DNA from: Bacteroidaceae bacterium
GTDB lineage: Bacteria > Bacteroidota > Bacteroidia > Bacteroidales > Bacteroidaceae
NCBI GenBank assembly: GCA_017617335.1
Contig: JAFZWK010000058.1
Location: 48,277 to 112,276, forward strand
DNA length: 64,000 nucleotides
Direction: 5' to 3'
Every line of letters begins with the position of its first letter. The first letter of the stretch is position 1. The translations under genes were made by a program, and so were the position numbers. Shown one piece after another: positions 5,648 through 58,744 of this stretch. The notes under the pieces were generated by a model. The model was not told where the DNA came from. It worked only from the letters and a program-made list of their open reading frames with translations, and did no database searches.

Positions 5648-7903
5648 ATGCATAGCATTCCTGCATATCGACATACACTTATCTGTCTGGCTCTCCTGTT
5701 TGGACTCAGCTACCAGGTTAGTGGTCAGAATATTATGCGAAGTCAAGACAGATCTGGCATCGACGAATACAACGAGTCAGGGAATTACAGGGATGATGCT
5801 GGCAACAGCTTGTCGTGGGGAGGACGCGACACGACGAGTCACAAAGATGGAAAACCCATCCCCATCGGAATCTTTCAATGGGTCATCGATCCCAGGCTGG
5901 GAACGGTGATACCTGCTGAGAACAATGATACGATAGTCCACAATTACCAGAACAACAACCTGACGGAAGGCTATACAGGGCAATACAATTTCTTGGGCAA
6001 TCTGGCAGCACCTCGCCTCAACCGTATCTTCATGAACCGCGAGCGAGTTTCCGACCAGATTTTCCTAGAGCCCTATAGCTTCTTTCGAGGCTCGCTTAGC
6101 GATTTCCGTTTCACAAATACCCTGAGCCCTGTTACAAACCTTGCCTACAACAAGTGTGGCAATAACCAGAACGGAGAGGACCGTATCCGTGCCTACTTCG
6201 CAAGCAATATCAACAAGATATCAGGCATAGGCTTCAAACTCGATTATTCGTATGGACGAGGCTACTACAATGCATCTGCCAACAGCTTGTTTGGCGGAAC
6301 TGTCTTCGGCTATTATCGAGGGGAGAAGTACAGCATGCATGCCTACATCAATGCCAACCATATAAAGACAGGGGAAAATGGAGGTATTGAGAACGACCTC
6401 TACATTGTGGACCCACAGAGTTTCCAGACAAGCTATGGAAGCAAAGACATTCCTACCAACCTCAGCGACACGTGGAATCGCAACAACGAACAGAACTTCT
6501 ACCTAACTCACAACTACAGCGTGGGCATCACTCGTGAAATTGAGATTCCTGATTCCCTGAAACCCAAGCCCCCCTCTGAAACGGAGCTGCTGAGCCAACT
6601 GAGCGACAGCATACGTGGCATATTGCGTGAGGATAGCATACGCCGCCAGGTAACTGTTGATTCCCTTCTGCTAGCTTGGCAGAATTCCCTCATCATCCCC
6701 ACAGAATTCCTACCTGTCACCAGCTTCATCCATACGCTCGACATCCGTCGTATGCAGCACACCCATATCGCCAAGAATACTCCAAACAGCTGGTACACAA
6801 ACCATTACTACGGAAAATGGAACAAGGTGGATGATGAGACTGATGCAATGAGCGTACGCAACACGTTGGGTCTCGCCATCCGCGAGGGCTTCAGCAAATG
6901 GGCAGCGATGGGTATCACGGCCTATGCCTCGCACAAACTCAGGACCTATACTCTGCCAATCCTCCTTGCCGATAGTGTGGGCAGAAACAAATGGACAGAG
7001 AATGACATCTCTGTGGGTGGCGAGTTGAGTCGCACCCAGGGACGTGTTCTCCACTACAACGCGAATGCTGAGTTCTGGCTTGTGGGCGAGAATCTGGGTG
7101 ACTTCAACGTGGATGGAACCATCTCGACAAACATTCGCACAGGAGAGACTGACAGCATCCTCATTTCCGCCCATGCAAACCTGCGGCACGAGACTCCCTC
7201 CTTCTATTTCCGCCACTTCCATTCCCAATCTGCTTGGTGGGACAACACCAGTATGGACAAGGAACTTCACACGCGCATCGAGGGGCAGATAGATGTCAGC
7301 AAGTCACACACGAGGCTGAACGTAGGATTTGAAAACGTGCAGAACTACACCTTCTTCGGCATGAGGAATACCCTGCTCAGCAAAAAGGATTCAACGAGTG
7401 TCATACCAGCTGACTACAGCCACGAGGTAGCTGTCATGCAGCACGGCGGAAGCATCCAGATTTTTAGCGCGACACTAAGCCAAGACTTGCATCTGGGCCC
7501 CGTTCATTGGGACAATGAGGTTACCTACCAGAAGACCTCCAACAAGGATGTCCTCCCCCTGCCCGATGTCTCGATATACAGCAACCTCTATCTGCTTTTC
7601 CATATTGCCAAGATACTGCGCGTGCAGCTGGGAGGCGACGTGAGGTATTGGACCTCCTATTATGCTCCTGACTATTCGGCAAACATTGGGCAGTTCGCTG
7701 TTCAGGATGCATCCCATCAGCGCGTAAAGGTTGGCAACTACCCCATCATCAATGTTTACCTGAACATGCACCTGAAACGATGCCGCATCTATCTGGCTAT
7801 GGATCACGTGAACGCAGGGTCAGGGCGATACTTTTGGGCACCCCACTATCCAGTAAACCCACGCACCTTCCACTTCGGCGTAAGCTGGAACTTCTTCAAT
7901 TAA
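5648..7903 (+). CDS. Putative porin (Porin_10-like outer-membrane beta-barrel)
   Basis: 751 residues. The signal peptide ends near residue 26 (YQVSG before QN). The rest alternates short amphipathic strands and Asn/Tyr/Ser-rich loops, and ends in aromatic residues (FHFGVSWNFFN) as outer-membrane barrels do. Length and the early NNDTIVHNYQ region resemble the Bacteroidota putative porin family; the assignment is by overall look. It is last in its operon. The stop codon TAA at 7901-7903 forms the first bases of a repeat array (7901-7998). An exact repeat core at 6859 inside the gene appears to be chance. Confidence 0.75.
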   Translation: MHSIPAYRHTLICLALLFGLSYQVSGQNIMRSQDRSGIDEYNESGNYRDDAGNSLSWGGRDTTSHKDGKPIPIGIFQWVIDPRLGTVIPAENNDTIVHNYQNNNLTEGYTGQYNFLGNLAAPRLNRIFMNRERVSDQIFLEPYSFFRGSLSDFRFTNTLSPVTNLAYNKCGNNQNGEDRIRAYFASNINKISGIGFKLDYSYGRGYYNASANSLFGGTVFGYYRGEKYSMHAYINANHIKTGENGGIENDLYIVDPQSFQTSYGSKDIPTNLSDTWNRNNEQNFYLTHNYSVGITREIEIPDSLKPKPPSETELLSQLSDSIRGILREDSIRRQVTVDSLLLAWQNSLIIPTEFLPVTSFIHTLDIRRMQHTHIAKNTPNSWYTNHYYGKWNKVDDETDAMSVRNTLGLAIREGFSKWAAMGITAYASHKLRTYTLPILLADSVGRNKWTENDISVGGELSRTQGRVLHYNANAEFWLVGENLGDFNVDGTISTNIRTGETDSILISAHANLRHETPSFYFRHFHSQSAWWDNTSMDKELHTRIEGQIDVSKSHTRLNVGFENVQNYTFFGMRNTLLSKKDSTSVIPADYSHEVAVMQHGGSIQIFSATLSQDLHLGPVHWDNEVTYQKTSNKDVLPLPDVSIYSNLYLLFHIAKILRVQLGGDVRYWTSYYAPDYSANIGQFAVQDASHQRVKVGNYPIINVYLNMHLKRCRIYLAMDHVNAGSGRYFWAPHYPVNPRTFHFGVSWNFFN

Positions 7904-7998
7904 CGTGTTGAGACGAAAAAGACAACGTGTTGTGTTTGCAGTTTCAACGTGTTGAAATGCTCAAGTCAACGTGTTGAAACTGGGAAGTCAACGTGTTG
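7901..7998. repeat. 22-bp lattice array 1 (five units)
   Basis: Units start at 7901, 7923, 7945, 7967 and 7989, exactly 22 bp apart. Each has the 10-bp core CAACGTGTTG (the first has T in place of C), and the 12-bp spacers all differ. The array fills the gap between two convergent genes: the stop of the porin gene is in unit 1 and the stop of the minus-strand membrane-protein gene is in unit 5. No hairpin terminator is visible here. Confidence 0.9.
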
Positions 7999-8875
7999 TC
8001 TCCTCTATCGTTTGCTGTCGCTTCTGCTCATTCTCAGTAATGCTTCCCCAAAGCAGGCATTGGGCGTGGCTCCAAGCAAAGCTTGCCATCAGCAGGAGGA
8101 CGGTGCAGACGGCAAAGGCAAGTGCTGTGAGCAGCCAGTAATGAGAAGGTAGACTGACGGTATCGCCCATCGCGATGGATTCGCCTGCTTTGAGATTGAC
8201 CAGAGCGATGACCATCATGGGCAGCAGGGCTACAAGGGAGACGAGCACCATGAGAATGAGTCCCACGAGGTTGAACGCCAGAATACGGCCATAATAGCGC
8301 CAGCCTGTGGCATATCCCACAAAGCATTGGGCTATGCTCTTGTCGCTGTATCTGACCTCCATGACAATCATATCGACAGGCACAATCAACAGCAGAATCA
8401 CCAGCAGGGCTACAGCAAAAGCCCAGACGGGCAACTGGAAGATGGCCAGGCCATAACCAGCGACAAACGAAAGGAGAAACAGAAGAATGAACAGAATCAA
8501 CAGGCTGCAATCCCTCGCCATTCGCTTGCCGATAAGGGGGCGCAGGGTTTTCATTGTGGCTACTGGCTCGTAGTCGAGGTCGCGCCAACGCACCAGCATG
8601 GCATCCATCGTGCCGATGTAGAGCAGCCCTCCAAAGAGGCTGAGGAGGCAGACAACGAGTGAGGCGATGAGCATCGGCGTTTTAGGCTCGGAAGCCAGTT
8701 GCTGAGTGACCAGACCTGTCAGAGCAGAAAGGGCAGCACACACCACGAGTGCCGGCCAGATATAATGGAGGAGGTTTCCAGAGTTGTTCCAAGCCTGACG
8801 GATACCCTCCGTGATGCAATGCACATAGTTACGTTCTTCGCAAACTTTCACCAATTTTTCTGTCTTCGATTCCAT
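7988..8875 (-). CDS. Six-helix integral membrane protein, unknown function
   Basis: 295 residues. After a cytoplasmic helix (about 1-35) come roughly six hydrophobic segments: LLHYIWPALVVCAALSALTG, IASLVVCLLSLFGGLLYIG, LLILFILLFLLSFVAGYG, FAVALLVILLLIVPV, LVGLILMVLVSLVALLPMMV and ALAFAVCTVLLLMASFAW. The C-terminus is short and charged. The last codons and stop (Thr-Thr-Arg-stop) lie in a repeat unit. I do not recognise a named family. It is transcribed alone, divergent from the oxidoreductase gene. Confidence 0.75.
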   Translation of the reverse strand: MESKTEKLVKVCEERNYVHCITEGIRQAWNNSGNLLHYIWPALVVCAALSALTGLVTQQLASEPKTPMLIASLVVCLLSLFGGLLYIGTMDAMLVRWRDLDYEPVATMKTLRPLIGKRMARDCSLLILFILLFLLSFVAGYGLAIFQLPVWAFAVALLVILLLIVPVDMIVMEVRYSDKSIAQCFVGYATGWRYYGRILAFNLVGLILMVLVSLVALLPMMVIALVNLKAGESIAMGDTVSLPSHYWLLTALAFAVCTVLLLMASFAWSHAQCLLWGSITENEQKRQQTIEETTR

Positions 8876-8927
8876 CTTTATGATTCGTTTTCCTCAAATT
8901 TGAATACAAATATACGGAATAAAAGTG

Positions 8928-8935
8928 TATCTTTG
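8928..8935 (+). promoter_or_regulatory. -7 promoter element of the Gfo/Idh gene
   Basis: TATCTTTG fits TAnnTTTG and lies 27 bp before the ATG at 8963. A TTTG occurs at 8899-8902, a spacing of 25 bp, longer than usual. It supports the 8963 start over a longer reading frame that would begin inside the opposing gene. Confidence 0.5.
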
Positions 8936-8962
8936 CATCGAAACATCGTTTTTTTTATCATT

Positions 8963-9952
8963 ATGGATAGCGAGCAAGATATAAAATGGGGATTCATAGG
9001 TTGCGGAGAGGTTACTGAGAAGAAAAGCGGGCCTGCGTTCAGCAAAATTCCCAGGTCATCGGTAGTGGCTGTGATGGGTAGAAACCAGGAGAAGGTGGAG
9101 TCCTATGCACGAAGGCATAACATTCCCAGATGGTACACGGATGCACAGCAGCTGATTGACGACACGGAGGTGAACGCCATCTACATCGCCACTCCCCCCT
9201 CCTCGCACGCTACCTACGCCATCATGGCCATGAAGGCAGGCAAGCCTGTTTACGTGGAGAAGCCTCTGGCAAGCAGTTATCTCGACTGCCAGCGCATCAA
9301 CCACATCAGCGAGCAAACCCACATTCCCTGCTTCGTGGCTTATTACCGCCGCTTTCTTCCCTACTTCCTGAAGGTGAAGGAACTGGTCAAGCAGAATGCC
9401 ATAGGGAAAGTAATCAACGTGCAGATCCGCTTCGCAGTTCCACCTCGAGAGTTGGACTACAACAGCACGAACCTTCCTTGGCGCGTGCAGCGCGACATCG
9501 CTGGCGGAGGGTATTTCTATGACCTGGCTCCCCATCAGATTGACTTCCTGCAGGAGCTACTGGGGCCCATCGTGAAGGCGACTGGTTACACGTCCAACAT
9601 GGGCGGATTGTATCAGACGGAGGATAATGTGAGCGCAGCCTTCCAGTTTGCTTCAGGACTGTCAGGGAGCGGGTCGTGGTGCTTCGTCAGTCATGAGAGT
9701 GCGCGTACAGACCGCATAGAACTGATTGGTGATCAAGGGCAGATCTGCTTCAGCGTATTCACCTACGAGCCCATCGCGTTGCATACCAGCGAGGGACGCC
9801 AGGAGATCAGGGTTGAGAATCCACCTCACGTGCAGCTTCCGCTCATACAAAAAGTCGTGGAGCATCTGCAGGGGACAGGAATCTGTACTGCAGACAGCGT
9901 CTCAGCCACGAGCGTTAACTGGGTGATGGACAGAATCTTAGGGAAGATTTAG
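8963..9952 (+). CDS. Gfo/Idh/MocA-family NAD(P)-dependent oxidoreductase
   Basis: 329 residues from ATG 8963. An N-terminal Rossmann fold shows GFIGCGEVTEKKSGPA. The family motif EKPLA is in VYVEKPLASSYLDC, and the substrate-domain helix FYDLAPHQIDFLQELLG follows. By family it oxidises or reduces sugars, inositols or related polyols with NAD(P); the substrate cannot be read from sequence. A longer in-frame start at 8699 overlaps the divergent membrane-protein gene and lies upstream of the promoter, so it was rejected. Confidence 0.9.
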   Translation: MDSEQDIKWGFIGCGEVTEKKSGPAFSKIPRSSVVAVMGRNQEKVESYARRHNIPRWYTDAQQLIDDTEVNAIYIATPPSSHATYAIMAMKAGKPVYVEKPLASSYLDCQRINHISEQTHIPCFVAYYRRFLPYFLKVKELVKQNAIGKVINVQIRFAVPPRELDYNSTNLPWRVQRDIAGGGYFYDLAPHQIDFLQELLGPIVKATGYTSNMGGLYQTEDNVSAAFQFASGLSGSGSWCFVSHESARTDRIELIGDQGQICFSVFTYEPIALHTSEGRQEIRVENPPHVQLPLIQKVVEHLQGTGICTADSVSATSVNWVMDRILGKI

Positions 9953-9995
9953 ACGACACGTTCTTACCCCTCCCTTCTTTCTTTATTGGAAAAAG

Positions 9996-10033
9996 AAAAT
10001 CCTGAGCTCTCACAGACGAGAACCCAGGATTTT
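9996..10033. terminator. Bidirectional terminator hairpin
   Basis: AAAATCCTG (9996-10004) pairs with CAGGATTTT (10025-10033), with an inner TCTC/GAGA pairing. The A and T runs serve transcripts in both directions. It separates the oxidoreductase gene from the convergent surface-protein gene. Confidence 0.75.
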
Positions 10034-10065
10034 ACTTTTATCGATTGCTTGAGGCGCAGGGAGCC

Positions 10066-14814: not shown

Positions 14815-14870
14815 CAACACGTTGAAATGGGAAAGTCAACACGTCGCGCCCGCCGAATCTCAACGTGACG
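14815..14870. repeat. 22-bp lattice array 2 (degenerate)
   Basis: CAACACGTTG at 14815 is followed exactly 22 bp later by CAACACGTCG at 14837. A third, poorer unit (CAACGTGACG, 14861) is displaced by 2 bp. It starts 18 bp after the right arm of the inverted repeat. Confidence 0.7.
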
Positions 14871-23081: not shown

Positions 23082-24269
23082 ATGACATTTCCAATCGACA
23101 AATTACAGACAATACGCACTCCCTTCTACTATTATGACACGGAGTTGCTCGACGCAACACTTCGCGCCATCAAGTCTGAAACTGACAAGCACGCTGGCTA
23201 TCATCTCCACTATGCTGTCAAGGCATGTGCCAACCCCAAGGTGCTGCGCCACATCACAGCTGCTGGAATGGGAGCTGACTGCGTAAGCGGAGGTGAGATA
23301 GAGGCTTGCCTGAAGGCAGGATTCCCTGCTGATGAGATCGTCTTCGCTGGCGTAGGGAAATGCGATTGGGAAATAGAACTGGGGCTGAAAGTCGGCATCC
23401 AGTATTTCAACGTGGAAAGTATTCCTGAACTGGAGGTCATCAACGAGATAGCTGGACGAATGAACAAGGTGGCTCAAGTGAGTTTCCGCATCAATCCCAA
23501 CGTGGATGCGCACACGCACAGCAACATCACCACAGGATTGGCCGAGAACAAGTTTGGAATAGCTATGGAAGATATGGAGAAAATCATCCGATTGGCTGAT
23601 TCTCTCCCCAACGTGAACTTCGTGGGACTGCATTTCCATATAGGAAGCCAGATTCTGGATATGGACAACTTCGTCGCCCTGAGTCATCGCATCAACGAGC
23701 TGCAAGATCGGCTGGAGGCAGAAGGCATCACAGAGGTGAAGAACATCAACGTGGGAGGCGGTCTTGGAATCGATTATGAGAATCCAGACGGACACCCCAT
23801 TCCTGACTTCAAGGCGTATTTCGACACCTATGCCAAGCACTTGAAACTCCGTCCAGGTCAGCATCTCCATTTCGAGTTGGGACGTGCTGTCGTGGGCCAG
23901 TGCGGCAGTCTGGTGACCCGCTGCCTCTATGTCAAGCAAGGCAGTACCAAGAAGTTCGTTATTGTGGACGCTGGCATGACAGAGCTCATACGCCCTGCTC
24001 TCTACAACGCTTACCATAAAGTCGAAAACCTGACCAGCAAGGCCCCTGCTGAGACATACGACGTGGTAGGCCCCATCTGCGAGAGCAGCGACACTTTCGT
24101 CAAGGACTACCAAATGCCTGGAACCCAGCGTGGCGACCTGCTCGCAATTCGTTCTGCAGGCGCCTATGGGGAAATCATGGCAAGCCAATACAATTGCCGC
24201 CCAATCCCAACAGGTTACGTTAGCGAAGACAACACGTCGACTTTTAAAACACAACACGTCGACTTTTAA
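23082..24269 (+). CDS. lysA: Diaminopimelate decarboxylase
   Basis: 395 residues. A fold-III PLP enzyme: the PLP lysine is in HYAVKACANP, with HIGSQILDMDNF, the phosphate loop GGGLGIDYE, and CESSDTF lining the active site. It makes L-lysine from meso-DAP. The family-like sequence ends at about PIPTGYVSED; the final 12 residues (NTSTFKTQHVDF) are encoded by repeat array 3, and the stop TAA is in the second spacer. The array therefore appears to have extended the protein. Confidence 0.95.
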   Translation: MTFPIDKLQTIRTPFYYYDTELLDATLRAIKSETDKHAGYHLHYAVKACANPKVLRHITAAGMGADCVSGGEIEACLKAGFPADEIVFAGVGKCDWEIELGLKVGIQYFNVESIPELEVINEIAGRMNKVAQVSFRINPNVDAHTHSNITTGLAENKFGIAMEDMEKIIRLADSLPNVNFVGLHFHIGSQILDMDNFVALSHRINELQDRLEAEGITEVKNINVGGGLGIDYENPDGHPIPDFKAYFDTYAKHLKLRPGQHLHFELGRAVVGQCGSLVTRCLYVKQGSTKKFVIVDAGMTELIRPALYNAYHKVENLTSKAPAETYDVVGPICESSDTFVKDYQMPGTQRGDLLAIRSAGAYGEIMASQYNCRPIPTGYVSEDNTSTFKTQHVDF

Positions 24270-24283
24270 AACACAACACGTCG
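24230..24283. repeat. 22-bp lattice array 3 (three units)
   Basis: CAACACGTCG starts at 24230, 24252 and 24274, exactly 22 bp apart. The two spacers (ACTTTTAAAACA) are identical, so here the array is a perfect tandem repeat, unlike the others. It overlaps the 3' end of lysA and ends 9 bp before the next gene. Confidence 0.9.
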
Positions 24284-36636: not shown

Positions 36637-37491
36637 TTAGTTCTCGTAGGCAGTGAGCCGCCAGCGACCACCTGTCTTGTCGAAGGTGAAAAGTTCCTGC
36701 ATGCCATTCGAGATTCCACATTTCTGGAGAACCATGTGACGAGGATTGGCGTAGGATTGACCATAACGGATGTTGGAAATCACTCCAGCAGGGACATCAG
36801 GGCAGAAAATGGACCATTGGAGAGCATCGATTGTTCCATCTATAAAGCCGAGTTCATCCTCAGGATCCATCATCTTGATTGAGAGAGGTTGCGCAATGCT
36901 TTCCGCCTGAAAGACGGAATCCTCAGAGAAATGGGCATAAAAAGTGAGGAAGTCAGAAAGCTCATCTTCTTCGAAAGAATTGTCTGCTAGATCTGCCAGC
37001 ATCCACTTCCCTTTCTCTTGAAGGAAAGTGTACGTAGTAACGTGACACAAGTCCAAATCTATGCGTTCCACATCTATCACATCGGATTGGCTGTTCTTTT
37101 CTTCTTCTATCTGAGCCGCATCGCCATACAGGACGGTGTAGTATTCCCCATCGAGAAACGAGAAGGCATCGCGCAGATTGGTACGTCGCAGAGCCACCTC
37201 GTTGCCCTCCTCATCATAGACATAAATGTCATTCGAAACACGCTCGCGCTGTAGCTGACGGCTACGGATGAAGGAAAACATGAAATCGTCGAAGTTGACA
37301 TCAAGGTGCTCAATGGAACCAACCTCATCGAGAGCATCTTCTTCCGCCTCAACCATATCGAGCGTATCCTCAGCATAAAAAAGGCTGTCTCTGGATTCCG
37401 CAGTCCCCTGAGAATCAGAACGACCTCCACAGGAGAGAAGCAAGCTAAATACCAACGACAGGGAACAGATTTCCCAAATCTTGCTGAACAT
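36637..37491 (-). CDS. Lipoprotein of unknown function
   Basis: 284 residues. A signal sequence ends LLLSCGG with the lipobox Cys near residue 21. An acidic linker (about 28-65) precedes a mixed alpha/beta domain of about 210 residues ending FDKTGGRWRLTAYEN, which resembles DUF4348-type Bacteroidota lipoproteins; that match is from memory and uncertain. It is upstream of murB on the same transcript and divergent from pheS. Confidence 0.7.
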   Translation of the reverse strand: MFSKIWEICSLSLVFSLLLSCGGRSDSQGTAESRDSLFYAEDTLDMVEAEEDALDEVGSIEHLDVNFDDFMFSFIRSRQLQRERVSNDIYVYDEEGNEVALRRTNLRDAFSFLDGEYYTVLYGDAAQIEEEKNSQSDVIDVERIDLDLCHVTTYTFLQEKGKWMLADLADNSFEEDELSDFLTFYAHFSEDSVFQAESIAQPLSIKMMDPEDELGFIDGTIDALQWSIFCPDVPAGVISNIRYGQSYANPRHMVLQKCGISNGMQELFTFDKTGGRWRLTAYEN

Positions 37492-37518
37492 ACCAACTAC
37501 GACTTACAAAAAATCATG

Positions 37519-37526
37519 CAAAAGTA
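37519..37526 (-). promoter_or_regulatory. -7 promoter element of the lipoprotein-murB operon
   Basis: On the minus strand TACTTTTG fits TAnnTTTG, 27 bp from the start codon. It is divergent from the pheS promoter. Confidence 0.4.
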
Positions 37527-37569
37527 CGCTTTTAATTCCATATACACTCATTTTTTCACAAGAAATTGC

Positions 37570-37577
37570 TACCTTTG
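37570..37577 (+). promoter_or_regulatory. -7 promoter element of pheS
   Basis: TACCTTTG lies 37 bp before ATG 37615. It supports this start over a longer in-frame start at 37306 that would run through the opposing lipoprotein gene. Confidence 0.6.
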
Positions 37578-37614
37578 CAGTGAAATTTCAAACAAGAGCA
37601 AAAACTACATCGAA

Positions 37615-38637
37615 ATGATCATAGAAAAAATTCAGGAATTGATGGGTGAAGTCACCAATCTGCAAGCAAAAACCGCTGAGGAAGCTGAGGCTTTGCGCAT
37701 CAAATATTTGAGCAAGAAGGGCGAAATCACAGCCTTGATGAACGATTTCCGCAACGTGCCGGCTGAGCAGAAAAAAGAGGTGGGCATGAAGATCAACCAA
37801 CTGAAGAACATGGCTCAAGAGAAGATCAACGCCCTGAAAGAGGCTGTCCAGACAGAACAAACCGCTGGCTCCGCCGTCGATCTGACTCGCACGCCCTACC
37901 CCATCCCCTTGGGAACACGCCATCCCCTCACCATCGTCAAAAACGAGATTATCGACATCTTTGGCCGCTTAGGCTTTACCTTGGCAGAAGGCCCTGAGGT
38001 GGAGGACGACTGGCATGTGTACAGCAGCCTGAATTTTGCAGATGATCATCCAGCACGCGACATGCAGGACACCTTCTTCGTAGAGTCTCATCCTGACATC
38101 ATCCTGCGCAGCCACACCAGCAGTGTGCAAGCCCGCGTAATGGAATCCACCCAGCCCCCCATCCGCGTAATCTGCCCAGGGCGCGTATACCGCAACGAGG
38201 CCATTTCCGCTCGTGCACATTGCTTCTTCCATCAGGTGGAAGGGCTTTACATCGATAAAGACGTCAGCTTCACAGACCTGAAACAAGTCCTGCTTCTCTT
38301 CGCTCAAGAAATGTTTGGGCCAGACACGAAAATCCGCCTTCGCCCCAGCTTTTTCCCCTTCACAGAGCCAAGTGCAGAGATGGACATCTCCTGCAACATC
38401 TGTGGCGGTGAGGGATGTTCCTTCTGCAAGCACACGGGGTGGGTAGAGATCCTGGGATGCGGTATGGTTGATCCAGCCGTCTTAGAAGCCAACGGAATCG
38501 ACAGCAAAATCTACAAAGGCTATGCCTTTGGTATGGGCATCGAGCGCATCACCAACCTGAAATATCAGGTAAAAGACCTACGCATGTTCAGTGAAAACGA
38601 TGTCCGCTTCCTTCGTGAGTTCGAAGCAGCCAACTAA
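37615..38637 (+). CDS. pheS: Phenylalanyl-tRNA synthetase alpha subunit
   Basis: 340 residues from ATG 37615. An N-terminal coiled coil (about 1-85) precedes the class II catalytic core: VYRNEAISARAHCFFHQVEG (motif 2), FFPFTEPSAEMDISC, and motif 3 in GMGIERITNLKYQV. Four cysteines in CNICGGEGCSFC form a zinc-like knuckle seen in many PheS proteins. It pairs with PheT, which is not in this window. Transcribed alone; followed by repeat array 4. Confidence 0.96.
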   Translation: MIIEKIQELMGEVTNLQAKTAEEAEALRIKYLSKKGEITALMNDFRNVPAEQKKEVGMKINQLKNMAQEKINALKEAVQTEQTAGSAVDLTRTPYPIPLGTRHPLTIVKNEIIDIFGRLGFTLAEGPEVEDDWHVYSSLNFADDHPARDMQDTFFVESHPDIILRSHTSSVQARVMESTQPPIRVICPGRVYRNEAISARAHCFFHQVEGLYIDKDVSFTDLKQVLLLFAQEMFGPDTKIRLRPSFFPFTEPSAEMDISCNICGGEGCSFCKHTGWVEILGCGMVDPAVLEANGIDSKIYKGYAFGMGIERITNLKYQVKDLRMFSENDVRFLREFEAAN

Positions 38638-38652: not shown

Positions 38653-38728
38653 CAACGTATGAACTTTAAGAAGTTAACGTGTTGACTTGCCCGATTCAAC
38701 ACGTTAACTTTCTCCTTTCAACACGTTG
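38653..38728. repeat. 22-bp lattice array 4 (four units, mixed polarity)
   Basis: Units start at 38653 (CAACGTATGA, decayed), 38675 (TAACGTGTTG), 38697 (CAACACGTTA) and 38719 (CAACACGTTG), all 22 bp apart. The central dinucleotide switches from GT to AC between units 2 and 3, so orientation flips without losing register. The array carries stop codons in all six frames. It lies between convergent pheS and the acetyltransferase gene. Confidence 0.88.
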
Positions 38729-38889: not shown

Positions 38890-39408
38890 TTAAAGCACCT
38901 TGGTAAAGACGATGGCATCGTGATTCCTGATCCAAAGAGGAAGAAGGCCTGAGCGCTGATAACCTGAATTCTGGAAGAGGGAAATGGCTGACGTGTTCTC
39001 GACTGAGACGTAGGCATAGAGAAGCTTCATCTGGAGCTGGAGGCGAGCATAATCGGCGAGGAGGCAAAGGGCTTCCTGAGCATAACCCTTCCCCTGTGCA
39101 TCAGCCATGAGGACGATACCTACCTCGGCACGATTCTGAAAAGCATCGTAGTTCTGAAGATCCACAAAACCCACAGTGATGCCTTCCATCGTCTCGATGG
39201 CAAGACGAAGTTGTTTGTCCTGATGAATGTCATTGGAGGTCTGAAGGATAAACTGACGCAGGGTGTAGCGTGAAAAGGGGACTGTGGTGCCACCACACGT
39301 CCAAAGCAGAGTGTCGTTCTCAATCAGGTACATCAAATCCAGGTCCTCAGGCTCTACGGCACGAAGCTGGATACGGGAAGATTGCAGAAGGGGAGCCATA
39401 GGGGTCAA
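38890..39408 (-). CDS. GNAT-family N-acetyltransferase
   Basis: 172 residues. RimJ/RimL-like layout: SSRIQLRAVEPEDLDLMYLIEND at the start, acetyl-CoA loop ADAQGKGYAQEALCLLADYA in the middle, and VENTSAISLFQNSGYQRSG near the end. It acetylates an amine with acetyl-CoA; substrate unknown. Its ATG overlaps the stop of the upstream glycosyltransferase by 4 bp. Confidence 0.88.
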   Translation of the reverse strand: MTPMAPLLQSSRIQLRAVEPEDLDLMYLIENDTLLWTCGGTTVPFSRYTLRQFILQTSNDIHQDKQLRLAIETMEGITVGFVDLQNYDAFQNRAEVGIVLMADAQGKGYAQEALCLLADYARLQLQMKLLYAYVSVENTSAISLFQNSGYQRSGLLPLWIRNHDAIVFTKVL

Positions 39409-46299: not shown

Positions 46300-46375
46300 C
46301 AACACGTTGAGTCGACAATTTCAACACGTTGAAATCGCAAAGACAACACGTTGAGTCGGGCAAGTCAACACGTTG
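46300..46375. repeat. 22-bp lattice array 5 (four exact units)
   Basis: CAACACGTTG occurs without change at 46300, 46322, 46344 and 46366, all 22 bp apart, with three different spacers. It lies between the 3' end of panD and the Dabb promoter, ending 21 bp after the panD stop in the transcriptional sense. No hairpin terminator is seen for panD. Confidence 0.93.
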
Positions 46376-46396: not shown

Positions 46397-46747
46397 TCAC
46401 TTTCGCACGACTCTGTTGTTCTCAGGGAAAACAACGATTGGACGGAAGGTCTTTGCCTCCTCGAAATCCATCAGGGCATAGGAAATAATGATAATCGTAT
46501 CGCCAACCTGTACCTTGCGGGCTGCAGCGCCATTGAGGCAGATACAGCCTGAACCACGCTCACCTGAAATGATATAAGTGTCGAATCGCTCGCCGTTGTT
46601 GTTGTTGACAACCTGTACCTTCTCACCAGCGATCAGGTTGGCAGCGTCCATCAAATCCTCGTCGATGGTGATGCTGCCGATATAGTTCAGATTTGCCTCT
46701 GTGACCTGAACGCAATGCAATTTCGATTTCAGAACCTCGATCATCAT
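46397..46747 (-). CDS. panD: Aspartate 1-decarboxylase proenzyme
   Basis: 116 residues (a second Met directly follows the first). The self-cleavage site Gly-Ser is in [10 protein letters not shown], where Ser25/26 would become the pyruvoyl cofactor; a conserved Lys is in [10 protein letters not shown] and Tyr in [14 protein letters not shown]. It makes beta-alanine for pantothenate. It follows panC by 32 bp. Confidence 0.95.
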
Positions 46748-51681: not shown

Positions 51682-52986
51682 CTAAATATCCTTTATAGCG
51701 TACAAATATTCACTATTATCAAACCATCCATGTGAGGTCAGTTGATTGTAGCAATTGCGAATTCTCAACCCCACTTTCTCCCAAGTAATGCGGTCTACCT
51801 CAGCCTTGCCTTCTTCACTCAGATACTTATGGAAGGCATCGTTGGTGCATATACAATATATAGCATCTGCCATAGCATCGATATCCCAGTAATCCACTTT
51901 GATTACTTTGTCCAATATCTCACCGCATCCACTCTGCTTACTGATGATGCTGGGACAACCACATTGCATAGCCTCCAAAGGCGCAATACCAAAGGGCTCA
52001 CTCACAGAGGGCATCACGAAGACATCACTGTTTTTGTAGCATTCATAAACCTGTTTACCTCGCTGGAATCCAGGGAAATGACAACGATCAGCTATTCCAT
52101 AAGCTGCTGCCAAATCAATCATGGCATCCATCATATCACCACTACCAGCGAAACAAAAACGAATATTATGACTTCTATCCAAAACACGCTTAGCAGCCTC
52201 CAGGAAATATTCAGGACCTTTCTGCATAGTGATACGACCCAAATAGGTCACAATCTTTTCATCAGAGTTCTTGTGAGGTTGGATAGCTTGTATTTCCTCT
52301 GAAAGAGGATAAACGGCATTATGCATAGCCACGCACTTGCGAGGATCCTGATGATACTGATTAATTACCGTCTGACGAGTCAACTCGCTCACACACATGA
52401 TGCAGTCTGCATGATCCATACCATTCTTCTCTATACTGTATACAGTGGGATTCACCTTGCCTCGAGAACGGTCGAAATCTGTAGCATGGACATGAATGCA
52501 GAGTGGCTTTCCACTTACCATTTTGGCATGTACGCCAGCAGGATAAGTCAACCAGTCATGTGCGTGTATTAAATCAAATTGTTCGCTGCGAGCCAGAACG
52601 CCAGCAATAATGCTGAAATTATTAATCTCATCATGCAGATTAGACGGATACCCACCAGCAAAACCTATGCATCCCATATCATCCAAGCCTTGCATGTAAT
52701 TGAAATCAGCATATAGATGATCACGGAAACGATAATAATCCTCTGCCGTATGACCCACGAAACGATTTCGAATGTTATCATATTGCACATCGCGCCATAC
52801 CACAGGTACCTGACTCATGTTGATAATCTTCAAAAAATGCTCTTCTTCTCCACTAGGACGGGGCATGCAGAAAGTGATATCAACATCTCCTTGGAGACTC
52901 AATCCCTTCGTTATGCCATAAGAGGCTACAGCCAAACCTCCATATATTTTGGGAGGAAACTCCCAACCAAACATAAGTACCTTCAT
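51682..52986 (-). CDS. Family 4 glycosyltransferase (glycogen synthase-like)
   Basis: 434 residues from ATG 52986, preceded by GGAGGT seven bases upstream; the in-frame TTG at 53007 is less likely. The GT-B start is KVLMFGWEFPPKIYGGLAV (Lys-x-Gly-Gly-like loop) and the donor-site E-x7-E motif is in EPFGIAPLEAMQCGCP. Sits between GH57 and debranching genes, so an alpha-glucan synthase role is inferred, in line with family members in Bacteroidales glycogen loci. Confidence 0.87.
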   Translation of the reverse strand: MKVLMFGWEFPPKIYGGLAVASYGITKGLSLQGDVDITFCMPRPSGEEEHFLKIINMSQVPVVWRDVQYDNIRNRFVGHTAEDYYRFRDHLYADFNYMQGLDDMGCIGFAGGYPSNLHDEINNFSIIAGVLARSEQFDLIHAHDWLTYPAGVHAKMVSGKPLCIHVHATDFDRSRGKVNPTVYSIEKNGMDHADCIMCVSELTRQTVINQYHQDPRKCVAMHNAVYPLSEEIQAIQPHKNSDEKIVTYLGRITMQKGPEYFLEAAKRVLDRSHNIRFCFAGSGDMMDAMIDLAAAYGIADRCHFPGFQRGKQVYECYKNSDVFVMPSVSEPFGIAPLEAMQCGCPSIISKQSGCGEILDKVIKVDYWDIDAMADAIYCICTNDAFHKYLSEEGKAEVDRITWEKVGLRIRNCYNQLTSHGWFDNSEYLYAIKDI

Positions 52987-53003
52987 ATCTTTACCTCCAT
53001 GTA

Positions 53004-54947
53004 TCAATAAGTGTTGTACTTATCCAACAATTTCACTACTCGCATGATACCAGCCACATTCATGGCAAAACTAATGGCTCCACGTCCGTGGAAAGGTGGA
53101 TTTCCATCAAAAAGTTCAGGAATAGTACCAATGCAATGGTAGAACAACTCTTCTTCGTAACCTACCAACAATCGGTCCACGTAACTGTAACGGCTCATCT
53201 TGAAGACCTTCAAACACGCCTCCATATAAAATCCAGCCACCCAAGGCCATGCTGTTCCCTGATGATATGCATAGTCCCGCTGTACCTGAGGTCCTACGTA
53301 CATAGGATTATATCCATGACTCTTAGGCGAAAGAGAACGAAGTCCCTTAGGCGTTGAAAGTTCCTTCGTACAATAGTCCAGCACACTTTTCTTCTGTTTC
53401 TGGTCTAAAGGAGAGTAATCCAAAGCTACTGCAAAAATCATATTGGGACGTACGTTATAGTCACGATAGCCATCCACACAATAGTCACACAAATAGCCAT
53501 ACTCGTTGTAGAACATCGGAACAAAGTTGCTGGCACACTTCTTGGCTTGAGTCTCCAATTCCTTAACCAGAGGAAGATCCTTCATGGTGCGGCAAACTTC
53601 AGCGCTAAACATCAAAGCATTGTACCACAGGCAATTGAATTCTACAATATAACCAGTGCGAGGAACAATTGGACGCCCATTTACTGTGCTATTCATCCAT
53701 GTGACAGCTTTGTCTCGTCCTTCACTATAAACCAATCCATTATCCTCAATTTTTAAATTGGGATGATTGCCTGCACGCAACCATTCCATGATGTCGCGCA
53801 ACAATTGTCCGTACTTCTCTATGCACTTATCCATCGACACTAAGTCGCCATACTGTTGGATGCACCATATCGCCCATAGCAGTACATCAGGATGTTCTAT
53901 CTCAGTCACACTCACACTCAATGGTTCACCTGCCATAAACTCTCGTATAGCCTTCTCTGCTGTGACCATAACAGACTCGAACTTTTGACTTTCGTGATTG
54001 GTTAAGGTAAGGCCTGGCAAAGAAATAAACATATCACGAGCACGGCACTTAAACCAAGGGTATCCTGCCAAAAGATAATCCTCATGATCCCTGTGAACCA
54101 GAAATTGATGAGCACTATTGATCAACGTATTATAGAAATTGTCACGAGGAGTTCGTATGTTCAATTCGAAGTCAGCCAATTCTGCAAGGGTCATCGTGTC
54201 AATCTCAGATAGACCTGCGCTGAAAACCACGCTCTCCCCTTTCGTTATATTGAACTCGAAATATCCAGGTACATACAAATCCTCGTTGCTTGAATAGCCG
54301 CGTTCCTGTTCCTTGGGATATTCCAATCCACGATACCAATCAGGACGGAACACAAACTGATTTTCCTTATTGATCTGCATGTAAAGTTCTGGATATCCAG
54401 GATACATACAGGTTTTTATACCGTTCTGTACAATCTGATACTCGCGACTGGCTCGACTGTTCTCATGCGTGAACTCACGGACACTCCTGAATGCCAGAAA
54501 GGGTTGCAGGCGCAAAGTCGTCTCACTATGTGCATCCACAAGAGTGTAACGAATAATTACACGGTTCTCAAAATGCTGAAACATCATCTCTCGCTTCAGA
54601 ATCACTCCACCCACACGATAGGTTGTGGTAGGCACCTGAAGAGAATCAAATTCTCGGATGTACTTGTGACCACGAGGGCTGAAATTGTTTCCTTGATATT
54701 TATGTAATCCCAAGTTGAACTCTGCACCATGCTGCACGACAGTTGCATCAAGCGAAGAGAGAAGAACATGGTTTTCGTCGTCCAATTCTGGTACAGGAAC
54801 AACCAATAGGCCATGATACTTTCTGGTATTACAATCCACCAAGGTGGTACATGAGTACGCTCCCGAACGATTCGATCTCAAAATCTCTTTCTGTAATGAG
54901 ACTTCGAGATTAGTCATAAGAGTCTTGTCAAATTTTAGGTAACTCAT
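53004..54947 (-). CDS. Glycogen debranching enzyme (amylo-alpha-1,6-glucosidase)
   Basis: 647 residues. An N-terminal bacterial GDE domain (about 1-250: SNRSGAYSCTTLVDCNTRKYHG) precedes an (alpha/alpha)6 catalytic domain (GYPWFKCRARDMFISLPGL, with the acidic residue; RTGYIVEFNCLWYNAL; HQGTAWPWVAGFY). No signal peptide. It removes branch stubs from glycogen. First gene of the GDE-GT4-GH57 run; its stop overlaps the TTG (but not ATG) start of the next gene. Confidence 0.92.
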   Translation of the reverse strand: MSYLKFDKTLMTNLEVSLQKEILRSNRSGAYSCTTLVDCNTRKYHGLLVVPVPELDDENHVLLSSLDATVVQHGAEFNLGLHKYQGNNFSPRGHKYIREFDSLQVPTTTYRVGGVILKREMMFQHFENRVIIRYTLVDAHSETTLRLQPFLAFRSVREFTHENSRASREYQIVQNGIKTCMYPGYPELYMQINKENQFVFRPDWYRGLEYPKEQERGYSSNEDLYVPGYFEFNITKGESVVFSAGLSEIDTMTLAELADFELNIRTPRDNFYNTLINSAHQFLVHRDHEDYLLAGYPWFKCRARDMFISLPGLTLTNHESQKFESVMVTAEKAIREFMAGEPLSVSVTEIEHPDVLLWAIWCIQQYGDLVSMDKCIEKYGQLLRDIMEWLRAGNHPNLKIEDNGLVYSEGRDKAVTWMNSTVNGRPIVPRTGYIVEFNCLWYNALMFSAEVCRTMKDLPLVKELETQAKKCASNFVPMFYNEYGYLCDYCVDGYRDYNVRPNMIFAVALDYSPLDQKQKKSVLDYCTKELSTPKGLRSLSPKSHGYNPMYVGPQVQRDYAYHQGTAWPWVAGFYMEACLKVFKMSRYSYVDRLLVGYEEELFYHCIGTIPELFDGNPPFHGRGAISFAMNVAGIMRVVKLLDKYNTY

Positions 54948-55006
54948 GGCAGACGTATTAATTCATATAAATTTCTTTTTCTTGGTAATAAACACGCTAA
55001 AGTTCT

Positions 55007-55014
55007 CAAAATTA
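55007..55014 (-). promoter_or_regulatory. -7 promoter element of the debranching-enzyme operon
   Basis: TAATTTTG on the minus strand fits TAnnTTTG, 59 bp from the start codon. No -33 element at 20 bp. The 228-bp divergent region up to 55175 holds this and the Crp-gene promoter only. Confidence 0.45.
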
Positions 55015-55107
55015 CGTAAAATTATTGAAGAAAAGAAACTTTTGAGGAGTTTTTTTCAATTTTGACACTATTTTGACATCTACATAAAAGAAAATCCATG
55101 AAAAGGA

Positions 55108-55139
55108 GTTGGTATTTTGTAAATAAATGTATAAATTTG
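55108..55139 (+). promoter_or_regulatory. Promoter of the Crp/Fnr regulator gene
   Basis: GTTG at 55108-55111 and TAAATTTG at 55132-55139 are 20 bp apart, 36 bp before the ATG. Confidence 0.6.
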
Positions 55140-55175
55140 TGCCGTACAACATGTTTTTGTTAGCAGTTTTCAGGA

Positions 55176-55877
55176 ATGGCTAAACACGAAATCAGTAAAA
55201 CTGAAGTTCAACTCAAACTACATGAACTTTTTTCTGCCCTAACCCCTGAGCAGCAGGAAATGGTGTTCCAGAATCTCACCATTCATAGTTACAAGAAAAA
55301 TGAACTCATATATTGCCAGGGTGAAACTCCTAGGGAATTACTATGCCTTATTTCTGGCAAAGTGAAGATTTACATGGATGGAGTGGGTGGACGCAGTCAA
55401 ATCATGCGGGTTGTTAATGCTGTGGAGTACTTTGGCTACCGTGCTTCTTTCTCTGGGGAGGTATTCATTACCTCAGCTGCTGCTTTCGAGTCATCCCTCA
55501 TCGCCAAGATTCCCCTTAAACTAGTCCGCAAAATGATTATGGAGAACACGCGATTAGGATGGTTCTTCATCCAAAAACTTGCTACCGCACTTGGCACCAG
55601 TGATGAACGCACCGTCAATCTGACGCAAAAGCATATTCGTGGCAGATTGGCAGAAAGCATTCTCTTCCTCAAAGAAAGTTATGGAGTTGAAGAAGATGGA
55701 TGCACTCTCAGCATTTATCTGAGTCGTGAGGATATGGCAAACTTAAGCAACATGACCACGAGTAACGCCATTCGTACCTTGAGCACCTTTGCTCAAGAGA
55801 AGCTAATCGCCATTGATGGCCGTAAAATTAAAATCATGAATGAGCCAGAACTGGAGAAAATTTCCAGATTTGGATAA
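55176..55877 (+). CDS. Crp/Fnr-family transcriptional regulator
   Basis: 233 residues. An N-terminal cyclic-nucleotide-binding-like barrel (about 15-130: YCQGETPRELLCLISGKVKIY) precedes a dimer helix and a C-terminal winged helix (LSREDMANLSNMTTSNAIRTLSTF as recognition region). No Cys cluster at the N-terminus, so not an FNR iron-sulfur sensor. It is divergent from the glycogen operon, so control of that operon is a reasonable guess; no palindromic operator was identified by eye. Confidence 0.9.
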   Translation: MAKHEISKTEVQLKLHELFSALTPEQQEMVFQNLTIHSYKKNELIYCQGETPRELLCLISGKVKIYMDGVGGRSQIMRVVNAVEYFGYRASFSGEVFITSAAAFESSLIAKIPLKLVRKMIMENTRLGWFFIQKLATALGTSDERTVNLTQKHIRGRLAESILFLKESYGVEEDGCTLSIYLSREDMANLSNMTTSNAIRTLSTFAQEKLIAIDGRKIKIMNEPELEKISRFG

Positions 55878-55911
55878 AGATTCTTACTTATTCCTTACGC
55901 CCTTTTTCTTC

Positions 55912-55931
55912 AGATATGACAACTCATATCT
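55912..55931. terminator. Perfect hairpin between convergent crp-like and miaA genes
   Basis: AGATATGA pairs with TCATATCT across a CAAC loop. There is no T tract on either side, so terminator function is uncertain. Confidence 0.4.
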
Positions 55932-55935
55932 CAAG

Positions 55936-56853
55936 CTATTCCAAAGAGCCATATAGTTCCAATATCTGCTCCACCTTGCTCTCTATGGAGTCCTCTGCGT
56001 TTATCCAGTGAATGGTCACTCCCCTTCGTTCCATTCCGCGGAACCATGTCATCTGACGTTTTGCAAACTGATGGATGGCAATTTCCAACTGCTTTACCAT
56101 CTCGTCGTACGACATCTTTCCTGTACAATAGAGTGTCAAATATTTGTATTCGAGCCCATAATATATCAAGTCTTCTGGTGCCACCCGTTCCAACAGGCCC
56201 CTCACCTCTTCCACCATTCCCTCCTCCAAGCGTTTGTATAATCGATCGGTTATCTTCTGTCTGCGCAATTCGCGATCAATTTTCACTCCTATGGTTAGAC
56301 TCTTCACGTTTGGAAAATCTCTTTCTCCGATGTGATTCTGTTGATAGTATTCTTGTATCTCGATTGCACGTATGGCGCGCTTGGGAGTATCCACGTCAGT
56401 CGTGTTGTGCAACGTCTTATACCGTTTCAATATTTCTGTCAATTCCTCCAAAGAATAGTGCCCCAGCTGCTCTCGTAAAACTGGATCCTCTGGTACAGTA
56501 ACCATCTTATAACTTCTCAGCACAGACTCAATATAAAGACCAGTTCCACCACACAAGATAACCTTTTGCCCTCGATTTAAGATATCATGATATTCCTCCC
56601 AGAATTTTTGTTGATATTGGAAAACGTTGTACTTCTCACCAGCATCCGCGATATCTATCAGGTGATAAGGAATCACCTGCCCGTCCACCGTATAATCCTC
56701 CACATCCTTCCCAGTCCCTATATCCATACCACGATAGATTTGACGACTATCAGCACTGATTATCTCAGCATTTCCCATTCGAGCTGCCAAATGGGCTGCT
56801 AATGTCGTTTTGCCTGAAGCTGTAGGTCCAAGGATAGTGATGAGATCGTACAT
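55936..56853 (-). CDS. miaA: tRNA dimethylallyltransferase MiaA
   Basis: 305 residues. P-loop GPTASGKT (9-16), the following SADSRQIYRGMDIGTGK motif, CGGTGLYIESVL, and the C-terminal FAKRQMTWFRG tRNA-binding motif. It adds a prenyl group to A37 of UNN-reading tRNAs. Some Bacteroidota carry two copies; only one is here. Confidence 0.95.
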   Translation of the reverse strand: MYDLITILGPTASGKTTLAAHLAARMGNAEIISADSRQIYRGMDIGTGKDVEDYTVDGQVIPYHLIDIADAGEKYNVFQYQQKFWEEYHDILNRGQKVILCGGTGLYIESVLRSYKMVTVPEDPVLREQLGHYSLEELTEILKRYKTLHNTTDVDTPKRAIRAIEIQEYYQQNHIGERDFPNVKSLTIGVKIDRELRRQKITDRLYKRLEEGMVEEVRGLLERVAPEDLIYYGLEYKYLTLYCTGKMSYDEMVKQLEIAIHQFAKRQMTWFRGMERRGVTIHWINAEDSIESKVEQILELYGSLE

Positions 56854-56882
56854 ACGCTTTGTACATAAATATATAATGAAAA

Positions 56883-56912
56883 GCCGCCCAAGGACAATGG
56901 CCCTCAGACGGC
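56883..56912 (-). terminator. Terminator of gap
   Basis: On the minus strand GCCGTCTGAGG pairs with CCTTGGGCGGC (11 bp with G-U pairs), loop of 8, then TTTT. It lies 33 bp after the gap stop. Confidence 0.7.
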
Positions 56913-56944
56913 TGATATTCGGTTTTGCTTTTTATCTAAATCAA

Positions 56945-57970
56945 TTAGAGCTCAGCCAAGTACTTAATGGTGCGAACCATCTGAGAAGTGTAAGAATTCT
57001 CATTGTCGTACCAAGAAACAACCTGTACCTGATAGGTATCGTCGTCAATCTTGCTAACCATTGTCTGAGTAGCATCGAAGAGTGAACCAAACTTCATGCC
57101 AATGATGTCGCTTGAAACAATCTGATCCTCAGTGTAGCCGAAGCTCTCTGTCTGAGCAGCCTTCATAGCCTCGTTGATGCCTTCCTTGGTGATATCCTTA
57201 CCCTTAACAACAGCAACCAGGATAGTGGTAGAACCAGTGGGAGTGGGAACACGCTGTGCAGAACCAATCAGCTTACCGTTCAACTCAGGAATTACAAGAC
57301 CGATAGCCTTGGCAGCACCTGTTGAGTTAGGAACGATGTTCTGAGCACCAGCACGGCTGCGACGGAGGTCACCCTTGCGCTGAGGACCGTCGAGAATCAT
57401 CTGGTCGCCAGTGTAAGCGTGGATGGTAGACATGATACCGCTAACGATGGGAGCATAACCATTCAGGGCAGCAGCCATAGGAGCCAGACAGTTGGTGGTG
57501 CAAGAAGCAGCTGAGATAACGGTGTCGGCAGGAGTCAGGGTCTTGTGGTTTACATTGTAAACGATGGTGGGCAGATCGTTACCGGCAGGAGCAGAGATAA
57601 CAACCTTCTTGGCACCAGCCTGAATGTGAGCCATAGACTTCTCCTTAGAGGTATAGAAACCAGTACACTCGAGAACAACATCAACACCCAGCTCACCCCA
57701 AGGGAGTTCTGCTGCGTTTGGCTTAGCATAAATAGTGATCTCCTTGCCATCAACGATGATAGAGTTCTCTGTTGCCTCTACCGTGTGCTTACCCTCTCCA
57801 AACTTGCCAGCGAAGCCACCTTGGCAGGTGTCATACTTCAACAGGTGAGCCAGCATCTTGGGGCTGGTCAAGTCGTTGATAGCTACTACTTCATAACCTT
57901 CTGCCTCGAACATCTGACGGAATGCGAGACGACCGATACGGCCAAAGCCGTTAATTGCTACTTTTGTCAT
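56945..57970 (-). CDS. gap: Glyceraldehyde-3-phosphate dehydrogenase
   Basis: 341 residues. The NAD-binding start is [17 protein letters not shown], the catalytic Cys is in [12 protein letters not shown], and [14 protein letters not shown] and [16 protein letters not shown] follow. Type I phosphorylating enzyme of glycolysis. Codon use is strongly biased, as expected for high expression. Transcribed alone; the 216-bp region to mscL is divergent and AT-rich. Confidence 0.96.
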
Positions 57971-58147
57971 TTTCTGATAATTTAGTTTATTGTTAAAAAA
58001 TGAATATTTAAACTCTATCTATCCCAAATAAACAATGTGAACCGTTTTTGGCATTCTCTGAACACCTGAAAGTCTTCAAAAATATGCGAAAAACACTATT
58101 TTCACCATTTTTTTTCTAAATTCCGTGCAAAATTACAATTTTCTTTT

Positions 58148-58155
58148 TAAATTTG
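58148..58155 (+). promoter_or_regulatory. -7 promoter element of mscL
   Basis: TAAATTTG fits TAnnTTTG, 31 bp before the ATG. No clear -33 box. Confidence 0.45.
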
Positions 58156-58186
58156 TTGCCTATAACCAAATAAATTATCAAAAATT

Positions 58187-58585
58187 ATGTCATTTATTCA
58201 AGATTTCAAAGCATTCGCGCTTAAAGGTAATGTAATGGACATGGCTGTCGGTGTTATCATCGGCGGTGCATTCGGTAAGATTGTCAGCAGTTTGGTGAAC
58301 GATGTTCTCATGCCCCTTATCGGCTTGGCAACAGGCAATGTAGACTTCACCAGCCTGGCCGTTAAATTTGGAGAAGGTGAAGGCGCTGCAGTACTCAAGT
58401 ATGGCCAGTTCATCCAGAATGTAGTCGATTTCCTCATCATCGCATTCTGTATCTTCCTGATGGTCAAAGGCATTGCTGCCCTCAACCGCAAGAAAGAAGA
58501 ACCTGCTGAGCCCGCTCCTGCTCCAGAACCTACTGCAGAAGAGAAAATTCTCACAGAAATCCGCGATCTGCTGAAGAACAAGTAA
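58187..58585 (+). CDS. mscL: Large-conductance mechanosensitive channel
   Basis: 132 residues. The N-terminal amphipathic helix and TM1 read [32 protein letters not shown]2 is about 78-100 ([19 protein letters not shown]); a C-terminal cytoplasmic helix follows a Pro/Glu-rich linker. It is a pentameric pressure-release channel for osmotic downshock. A strong terminator follows 60 bp later. Confidence 0.95.
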
Positions 58586-58647
58586 AGCAACCTGTGTCTC
58601 CTTCTCCCTTAGGGACAGATAAGGATTGTTTTACATTATTTAATTAT

Positions 58648-58684
58648 AAAGGGGGATCAAGAAAATCATATCTTGACCCCCTTT
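58648..58684 (+). terminator. Terminator of mscL
   Basis: AAAGGGGG and TCAAGA (58648-58662, one bulged A) pair with TCTTGA and CCCCCTTT (58671-58684). Lattice array 6 starts 7 bp later. Confidence 0.8.
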
Positions 58685-58690
58685 GCATTT

Positions 58691-58744
58691 CAACGTGTTG
58701 AGTTTGTCATTTCAACCAGTCATCAAGCCAAACAGAACGTGTTA
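58691..58744. repeat. 22-bp lattice array 6 (three units, two decayed)
   Basis: CAACGTGTTG at 58691, CAACCAGTCA at 58713 and GAACGTGTTA at 58735, all exactly 22 bp apart. The middle unit keeps only the left half. It lies between the mscL terminator and the serine hydrolase gene. Confidence 0.7.

What the first reader, a model, noticed from the sequence alone, without database searches (positions are those of the whole stretch)
7901..58744. A dispersed 10-bp palindrome, CAAC(AC/GT)GTTG, set on a strict 22-bp lattice in six intergenic clusters
Clusters begin at 7901, 14815, 24230, 38653, 46300 and 58691. Units in five of six clusters are exactly 22 bp apart; the third unit at 14861 is the only one off (24 bp). 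Spacers of 12 bp mostly differ. I count 13 exact copies of the core in 64 kb, against about 0.1 expected for one 10-mer on both strands at even base composition. Conserved period with non-conserved spacers points to protein binding on one DNA face (22 bp is close to two helical turns), to a spreading mini-element, or to translation control. It is not CRISPR and I recall no named family.
Basis: seen in the sequence. Interest (0 to 1): 0.85.

Follow-up and report, generated by a model that had tools for sequence, protein, structure and literature searches.

The report
Palindrome arrays on a 22-bp lattice
A bacterial genome (order Bacteroidales, judged by its relatives) carries many small clusters of a short DNA palindrome set 22 letters apart near gene ends, and a related species uses the same spacing with a different palindrome, which hints at a fast-changing chromosome-marking system whose reader protein is not known.

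Summary
The window holds six clusters of CAAC(AC/GT)GTTG on a 22-bp lattice; the genome has 157 exact core-N12-core pairs, the reversed-pattern control 0. In 387 kb all distances up to 200 bp between exact cores are 22, 44, 66 or 88. Arrays lie mostly 3' of genes, enriched between convergent genes, without strand preference. At sites shared with close relatives core arms are 93% identical, spacers 62%. Decisive: congener G004 has 102 pairs with another core, ATTCRYGAAT, on the same lattice, 0 in the other 40 genomes of the genus searched, this one included. Arrays look more evenly spread than chance (34 gaps, P=0.0001; weak in this genome alone). Best reading: phased double-stranded binding arrays for a lineage-specific dimeric protein, perhaps chromosome anchors or boundaries. 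Rivals: folded 3'-end hairpin elements (supported in a second lineage) or a spreading minisatellite. REP/RAYT, ParB and plain terminators were tested and not supported. The reader protein was not found.

The parts
7901..7998 (.). array 1: TAACGTGTTG then four CAACGTGTTG, 22-bp steps; between convergent ORFs 5648-7903 (+, Porin_10) and 7988-8875 (-)
   Evidence: the same site holds arrays in RGIG2783 (L047) and G009 (L218, 6 units)
14815..14870 (.). array 2: CAACACGTTG, CAACACGTCG (22 bp on), CAACGTGACG (24 bp on)
24230..24283 (.). array 3: three CAACACGTCG units, 22-bp steps, overlapping the 3' end of ORF 23082-24269
38653..38728 (.). array 4: CAACGTATGA, TAACGTGTTG, CAACACGTTA, CAACACGTTG, 22-bp steps; between ORF 37306-38637 (+, phenylalanyl-tRNA synthetase domain) and 38890-39399 (-)
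46300..46375 (.). array 5: four CAACACGTTG, 22-bp steps, 21 bp 3' of ORF 46397-46747 (-, aspartate decarboxylase)
58691..58744 (.). array 6: CAACGTGTTG, CAACCAGTCA, GAACGTGTTA, 22-bp steps

Best explanation
Each array is a row of adjacent dimer sites on double-stranded DNA. A sequence-specific, probably homodimeric protein covers about 22 bp (two helical turns), so neighbours stack in phase, and 3-5 sites make one cooperative cluster. The protein's specificity is lineage-specific, so the core changes between species while the lattice stays. Arrays at about one per 12-40 kb, kept at the 3' ends of transcription units, would mark the chromosome for nucleoid organisation, division control or domain boundaries. 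Shown: lattice, core constraint, 3' placement, strand neutrality, a second dialect genome-wide in one congener. Partly shown: even spread. Inferred: the protein, cooperativity and the anchoring role.
For: Only multiples of 22 bp occur between exact cores. Same lattice with another core, ATTCRYGAAT, in G004: 102 pairs, 0 in 40 other genomes. G012 arrays with other cores also exceed other lags in one test (5 at lag 22 against a maximum of 1). Core arms 290/312 identical across nine orthologous array pairs against 222/360 for spacers and 747/1040 and 767/1050 for flanks, which include coding sequence. Both core forms equal on the transcribed strand of codirectional genes: GT 72, AC 64. Of 59 intergenic placed arrays 22 are convergent, 31 codirectional, 6 divergent, against 34, 185 and 54 of 273 IGRs of 60 bp or more. 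Even spread: 34 gaps, P=0.0001 by summed log gap, P=0.0275 by number of short gaps. Neighbour genes share no function: of 28 scanned, 25 match Pfam families of mixed roles.
Against: No reader protein identified; ParB, one candidate, looks conserved across dialects. In RGIG8271 the outer flanks of an array pair with each other (9 of 16 perfect against 3.0 shuffled), and in RGIG8271 with its relatives folding beats shuffled spacers (26 arrays, mean z -2.87): this points to strand folding. Evenness is weak in this genome alone (P=0.087). Own-type units avoid longer palindromes, which a plain symmetric dimer does not require. Spacers are as conserved as flanks in two of nine pairs (0.83 and 0.88). 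G012 may hold more than one core, which does not fit one reader per species.
Confidence: 0.45

Rival explanations
1. Folded-strand element: the array acts as RNA at 3' ends (or as cruciform DNA); first and last units close a long hairpin that protects or ends transcripts, as REP/BIME sequences are thought to do.
For: 3' position. RGIG8271 alone 9 of 16 outer flanks perfectly complementary against 3.0; with relatives 12 of 28 against 3.0; own type weakly so (mean 2.68 of 6 against 2.41, P=0.03). Folding against shuffled spacers: mean z -2.87 for 26 RGIG8271-type arrays, -0.78 for 80 own-type arrays. Own type has A-rich starts and T-rich ends, and a hairpin with T-tract at or in the array at 27 of 75 gene ends.
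Against: A strict 22-bp step is not needed for RNA loops (inference). First and last centres are mostly the same form (GT/GT 31, AC/AC 27, GT/AC 15, AC/GT 3, other 4 of 80), so AC/AC arrays mispair. In own-type arrays the inner flanks pair less than shuffled (2.01 against 2.41, P=0.003); not so in RGIG8271. One relative's array lies after what reads by eye as a normal conserved terminator (L123).
Confidence: 0.25
2. Spreading minisatellite or MITE-like element (compare BrickBuilt) without host function.
For: Unit number differs between some orthologous arrays by whole 22-bp units; RGIG8271 arrays have conserved outer flanks, GGGGGT on one side and ACCCCCGAAGTCAAAGAAAAAAA on the other.
Against: Core constraint against spacers and flanks; 9 of 13 sites shared with close relatives; even spread; no Y1 transposase found in G000, G009, G004, G012, G001. 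An array-free orthologous site showed no obvious target duplication, but only one of three alignments was informative (L123/L137).
Confidence: 0.17
3. Protein roadblock that ends or insulates transcription, mainly between convergent genes.
For: Convergent enrichment; in codirectional gaps 28 of 31 arrays start within 120 bp of the stop codon.
Against: Independent intrinsic terminators are not clearly rarer: before or after the array at 14 of 75 ends with arrays, against 82 of 365 ends without.
Confidence: 0.1

Closest known systems
REP/BIME elements with RAYT (TnpA-REP) enzymes
   Same: short palindromes in many copies between genes, with families that differ between genomes
   Different: strict 22-bp lattice here; Y1 transposase family not found in five array-bearing genomes. 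The GT[AG]G foot of canonical REPs was not searched for. Passages of PMC6006769 seen; the rest is recalled
BrickBuilt MITE minisatellite of Porphyromonas gingivalis
   Same: Bacteroidales, intergenic, tandem units of similar length (23 nt), with leader and tail segments
   Different: its 23-nt consensus is not this core; 19 copies in strain ATCC 33277, with terminal inverted repeats; passages of PMC4596501 seen, abstract included
Chromosome-wide sites of nucleoid-occlusion factors (Noc, SlmA) and matS of MatP
   Same: dispersed sites read by one DNA-binding protein
   Different: rows on a 22-bp lattice are not known to me there; no second ParB-like protein in 12 of 13 genomes. For Noc and SlmA only starts of abstracts in a listing seen (PMC4331003, PMC4117426); matS is recalled
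Plasmid iterons
   Same: rows of about 22-bp units in helical phase with plasmid-specific sequence (recalled; one search found no paper)
   Different: direct repeats at a replication origin, not many palindromic arrays over a chromosome (recalled)

Membership tests
REP/BIME with RAYT | a Y1 transposase (PF01797) in the genome | tested here: not met
   0 in G000, G009, G004, G012, G001; 13 of 41 genomes searched (G000 included) have a match. G000 and G009 are 62% and 67% complete; RGIG2783 and RGIG8271 were not searched
REP/BIME with RAYT | hairpin with GT[AG]G foot | not tested
   no systematic search for the foot was made; feature taken from a passage of PMC6006769
BrickBuilt / MITE | terminal inverted repeats and conserved leader/tail | tested here: inconclusive
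   own-type arrays: only A/T-rich ends, no conserved leader; RGIG8271 arrays have conserved flanks
ParB/Noc-parS | an extra or altered ParB-like reader | tested here: not met
   one ParB_N protein in 12 of 13 genomes, three in G031; in 10 aligned proteins the helix-turn-helix stretch (place recalled, judged by eye) is nearly the same across dialects
intrinsic terminators | hairpin followed by T-tract formed by the array | tested here: not met
   27 of 75 gene ends with arrays have one at or in the array, 14 before or after it, 34 none, by a simple script
CRISPR | long repeats next to cas genes | not tested
   core is 10 bp and arrays are at many loci, so not pursued; cas genes were not searched
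SlmA/MatP-type chromosome sites | a site-binding protein of those families | not tested
   no search made

The most novel reading that the evidence does not exclude
A chromosome-marking code in Bacteroidales: a DNA-reading protein family with fixed 22-bp geometry whose recognised palindrome is re-invented between species, with scores of array sites per genome (estimated from 102-157 pairs) rewritten in step.
Probability: 0.35. Interest if true: 0.92.

Novelty: new variant of a known kind. Interest (0 to 1): 0.76.

Why it matters
A changed core at constant geometry would mean that a protein and scores of its sites switched specificity together within one genus, a clear case of regulator-site coevolution at genome scale. 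It could also give a handle on how Bacteroidales chromosomes are organised. My literature searches (open PMC papers, listings and some passages only) showed no description of such arrays; they were few and keyword-based. I rate it a new variant of dispersed intergenic palindromic repeats, at the edge of something categorically new because of the lattice and the dialects.

Tried and rejected
tRNA and Rfam scans of the window found nothing. Strand preference of cores or of T-rich spacers: none (codirectional arrays: A-rich 16, T-rich 12, mixed 3). Conservation of the first window site over the genus: 30 loci read, arrays only in G000 and G009 by the lattice score; several loci lie on the minus strand of their record and may not have been turned, so this is weak. 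A second locus query hit a large paralogous family and was not used. Viral contigs: 1 hit for the own core, 0 for the G004 core. Genes next to divergent, long or start-near arrays: no DNA-binding protein in common. ParB as reader: not supported. Uptake signals: set aside because cores come on a lattice and are rare in genes. Avoidance of paired flanks in own-type units is not clear in G004. The lattice tests for other congeners are weak one by one: lag 22 against the largest other lag (13-59, lag 44 aside) is G004 6 against 2, G012 5 against 1, G032 5 against 2, G016 5 against 4, G001 1 against 2, G003 1 against 2, G031 0; it is G004 3 against 1, G012 2 against 1, G016 2 against 2, G001 1 against 2, G003 0 against 1, G032 0 against 2. 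With more G012 sequence and a looser cut it was 5 against 7. G009, which has 132 pairs, gave 0 and 1 in its 40 kb, so absence in a stretch means little. An N-run (L024) was ignored. My notebook says about 10 of 13 orthologous sites; one search gives 9 of 13, two more arrays at a stretch edge (L090) being dropped.
Full report
Observation. The six clusters are present as described. The window is G000:C29:48277-112276 of a 2.37-Mb, 62% complete assembly. Exact core-N12-core pairs number 157 in this genome, 132 in G009, and 0 in the other 59 of 61 genomes searched (35 congeners, 24 of other families of the order). In 387,387 bases the 62 exact cores have mutual distances, up to 200 bp, of 22, 44, 66 and 88 only.

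Named relatives. Counts in ten of these genomes: RGIG2783 255, RGIG8271 78, E20 bin320 44, RGIG9746 33, RGIG6839 19, and 17, 15, 2, 2, 1 in five more. Single hits in Poribacteria, Nocardioides and Bacteroides xylanisolvens look like chance (inference). The CAMKMK bin appears to be G009, from one array with the same letters at the same place. Best-matching proteins of RGIG2783 and CAMKMK loci have median identities of 86% and 89% to this genome (63 and 19 proteins); the order of the window's genome is inferred from these.

Dialects. RGIG8271 uses mainly CAACGCGTTG, and E20 bin320 varies the outer base (SAAC..GTTS), all on 22 bp. These were found with the own core, so their likeness to it is by selection. 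A look for palindromes at fixed steps in stretches of congeners showed arrays at lag 22 with other cores: clearly ATTCRYGAAT in G004; in G012 TAACGTGTTA and TCACGTGTGA, with spacers like those of the window species; single or few, not individually significant, cases in G001, G016, G003 and G032. G031 (149 kb) and three genomes of other families (20 kb each) gave none, but neither did G009 in 40 kb. The G004 core was then counted genome-wide: 102 pairs in G004, 0 in the other 40 genomes of the genus searched. That count is the main evidence for dialects.

Anatomy. Own-type units (263): centre AC or GT in 261, GC in 2. In G004 the centres are GT 26, AC 24, GC 23, AT 1 in the 49 listed pairs. Own-type arrays have mostly 4 units (32 of 59), A-rich starts and T-rich ends.

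Place. Of 78 own-type arrays with at least two exact cores (own stretches, partly chosen around arrays, plus RGIG2783 and CAMKMK loci): 22 convergent, 31 codirectional, 6 divergent, 5 in genes, 14 at contig edges. In codirectional gaps 28 of 31 arrays begin within 120 bp of the stop codon, and 23 of 31 end more than 150 bp before the next start. Genes were called with a simple script of mine, not a standard caller. The few arrays of other lineages with flanking genes in hand show a weaker 3' bias.

Evolution. Of 13 testable RGIG2783/CAMKMK arrays, 9 have an array at the same site here. I aligned eight of these (the in-gene pair L075 left out) and the G009 copy of array 1: core arms 290/312, centres 69/78, spacers 222/360 (range 0.25 to 0.88), left flank 747/1040, right flank 767/1050 identical. 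In L064/L017 spacers are 9 of 36 identical while all eight centre letters agree. Some arrays differ by whole units.

Spread. On two contigs of this genome the gaps are more even than random eligible gaps between genes (P=0.013 and 0.099; the two-unit arrays at C29:15204 and window 14815 were not caught by that cut). With exact-pair listings and a uniform null, summed log gap: G000 P=0.087 (14 gaps), RGIG2783 P=0.024 (10), G004 P=0.0002 (10), together P=0.0001 (34); number of short gaps: P=0.134, 0.0075, 0.0092 and 0.0275. Contigs with truncated listings or unknown length were left out.

Mechanism. A fixed step of two helical turns, indifference to strand and to gene function, core constraint with free spacers, and another core at the same step in a congener fit binding of double-stranded DNA by a protein whose specificity changes. 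Even spread and 3' placement suggest a chromosome-level role rather than a regulon. Against it stands a folding signal: in RGIG8271 the outer flanks of an array match each other (9 of 16 perfect against 3.0), and in RGIG8271 with relatives folding is better than with shuffled spacers (26 arrays, mean z -2.87), weakly so in own-type arrays (80, mean z -0.78). RGIG8271 arrays also have conserved outer flanks. The reader protein is unknown.

Known systems. A Y1 transposase, the REP/RAYT agent, was not found in five array-bearing genomes; ParB is not a likely reader; a plain terminator does not fit most ends. BrickBuilt is the nearest described Bacteroidales repeat I saw, but differs in sequence and form. 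Literature searches covered open PMC papers only.

Noticed in passing
L165 4012-4116, L167 1436-1567, L168 9691-9839, L157 16171-16275: Congeners carry 7-bp tandem repeats (lags 14, 21, 28), reminiscent of the heptamer repeats described in PMC4679880 (passages).
   Followed up: no
L049, L052, L066, L085, L095, L098, L116, L117 (RGIG8271): Arrays framed by conserved asymmetric flanks: GGGGGT on one side, often with a T-tract, and ACCCCCGAAGTCAAAGAAAAAAA on the other.
   Followed up: partly
L142 14824 and L075 5765: An orthologous array inside a reading frame in both species.
   Followed up: no
L020 3825: A near-exact 22-bp tandem repeat (TGAATAAGGAGAAATTTTGGCT) without the core in this genome.
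   Followed up: no
L212 13055, L214 17318, L215 17022, L297 7415, L299 6800 (G012): Possibly several palindromic cores in one genome; the count is not above other lags with the loose cut.
   Followed up: partly
L051 923-1130: Longest array seen: 10 units with repeating spacers in RGIG2783.
   Followed up: no
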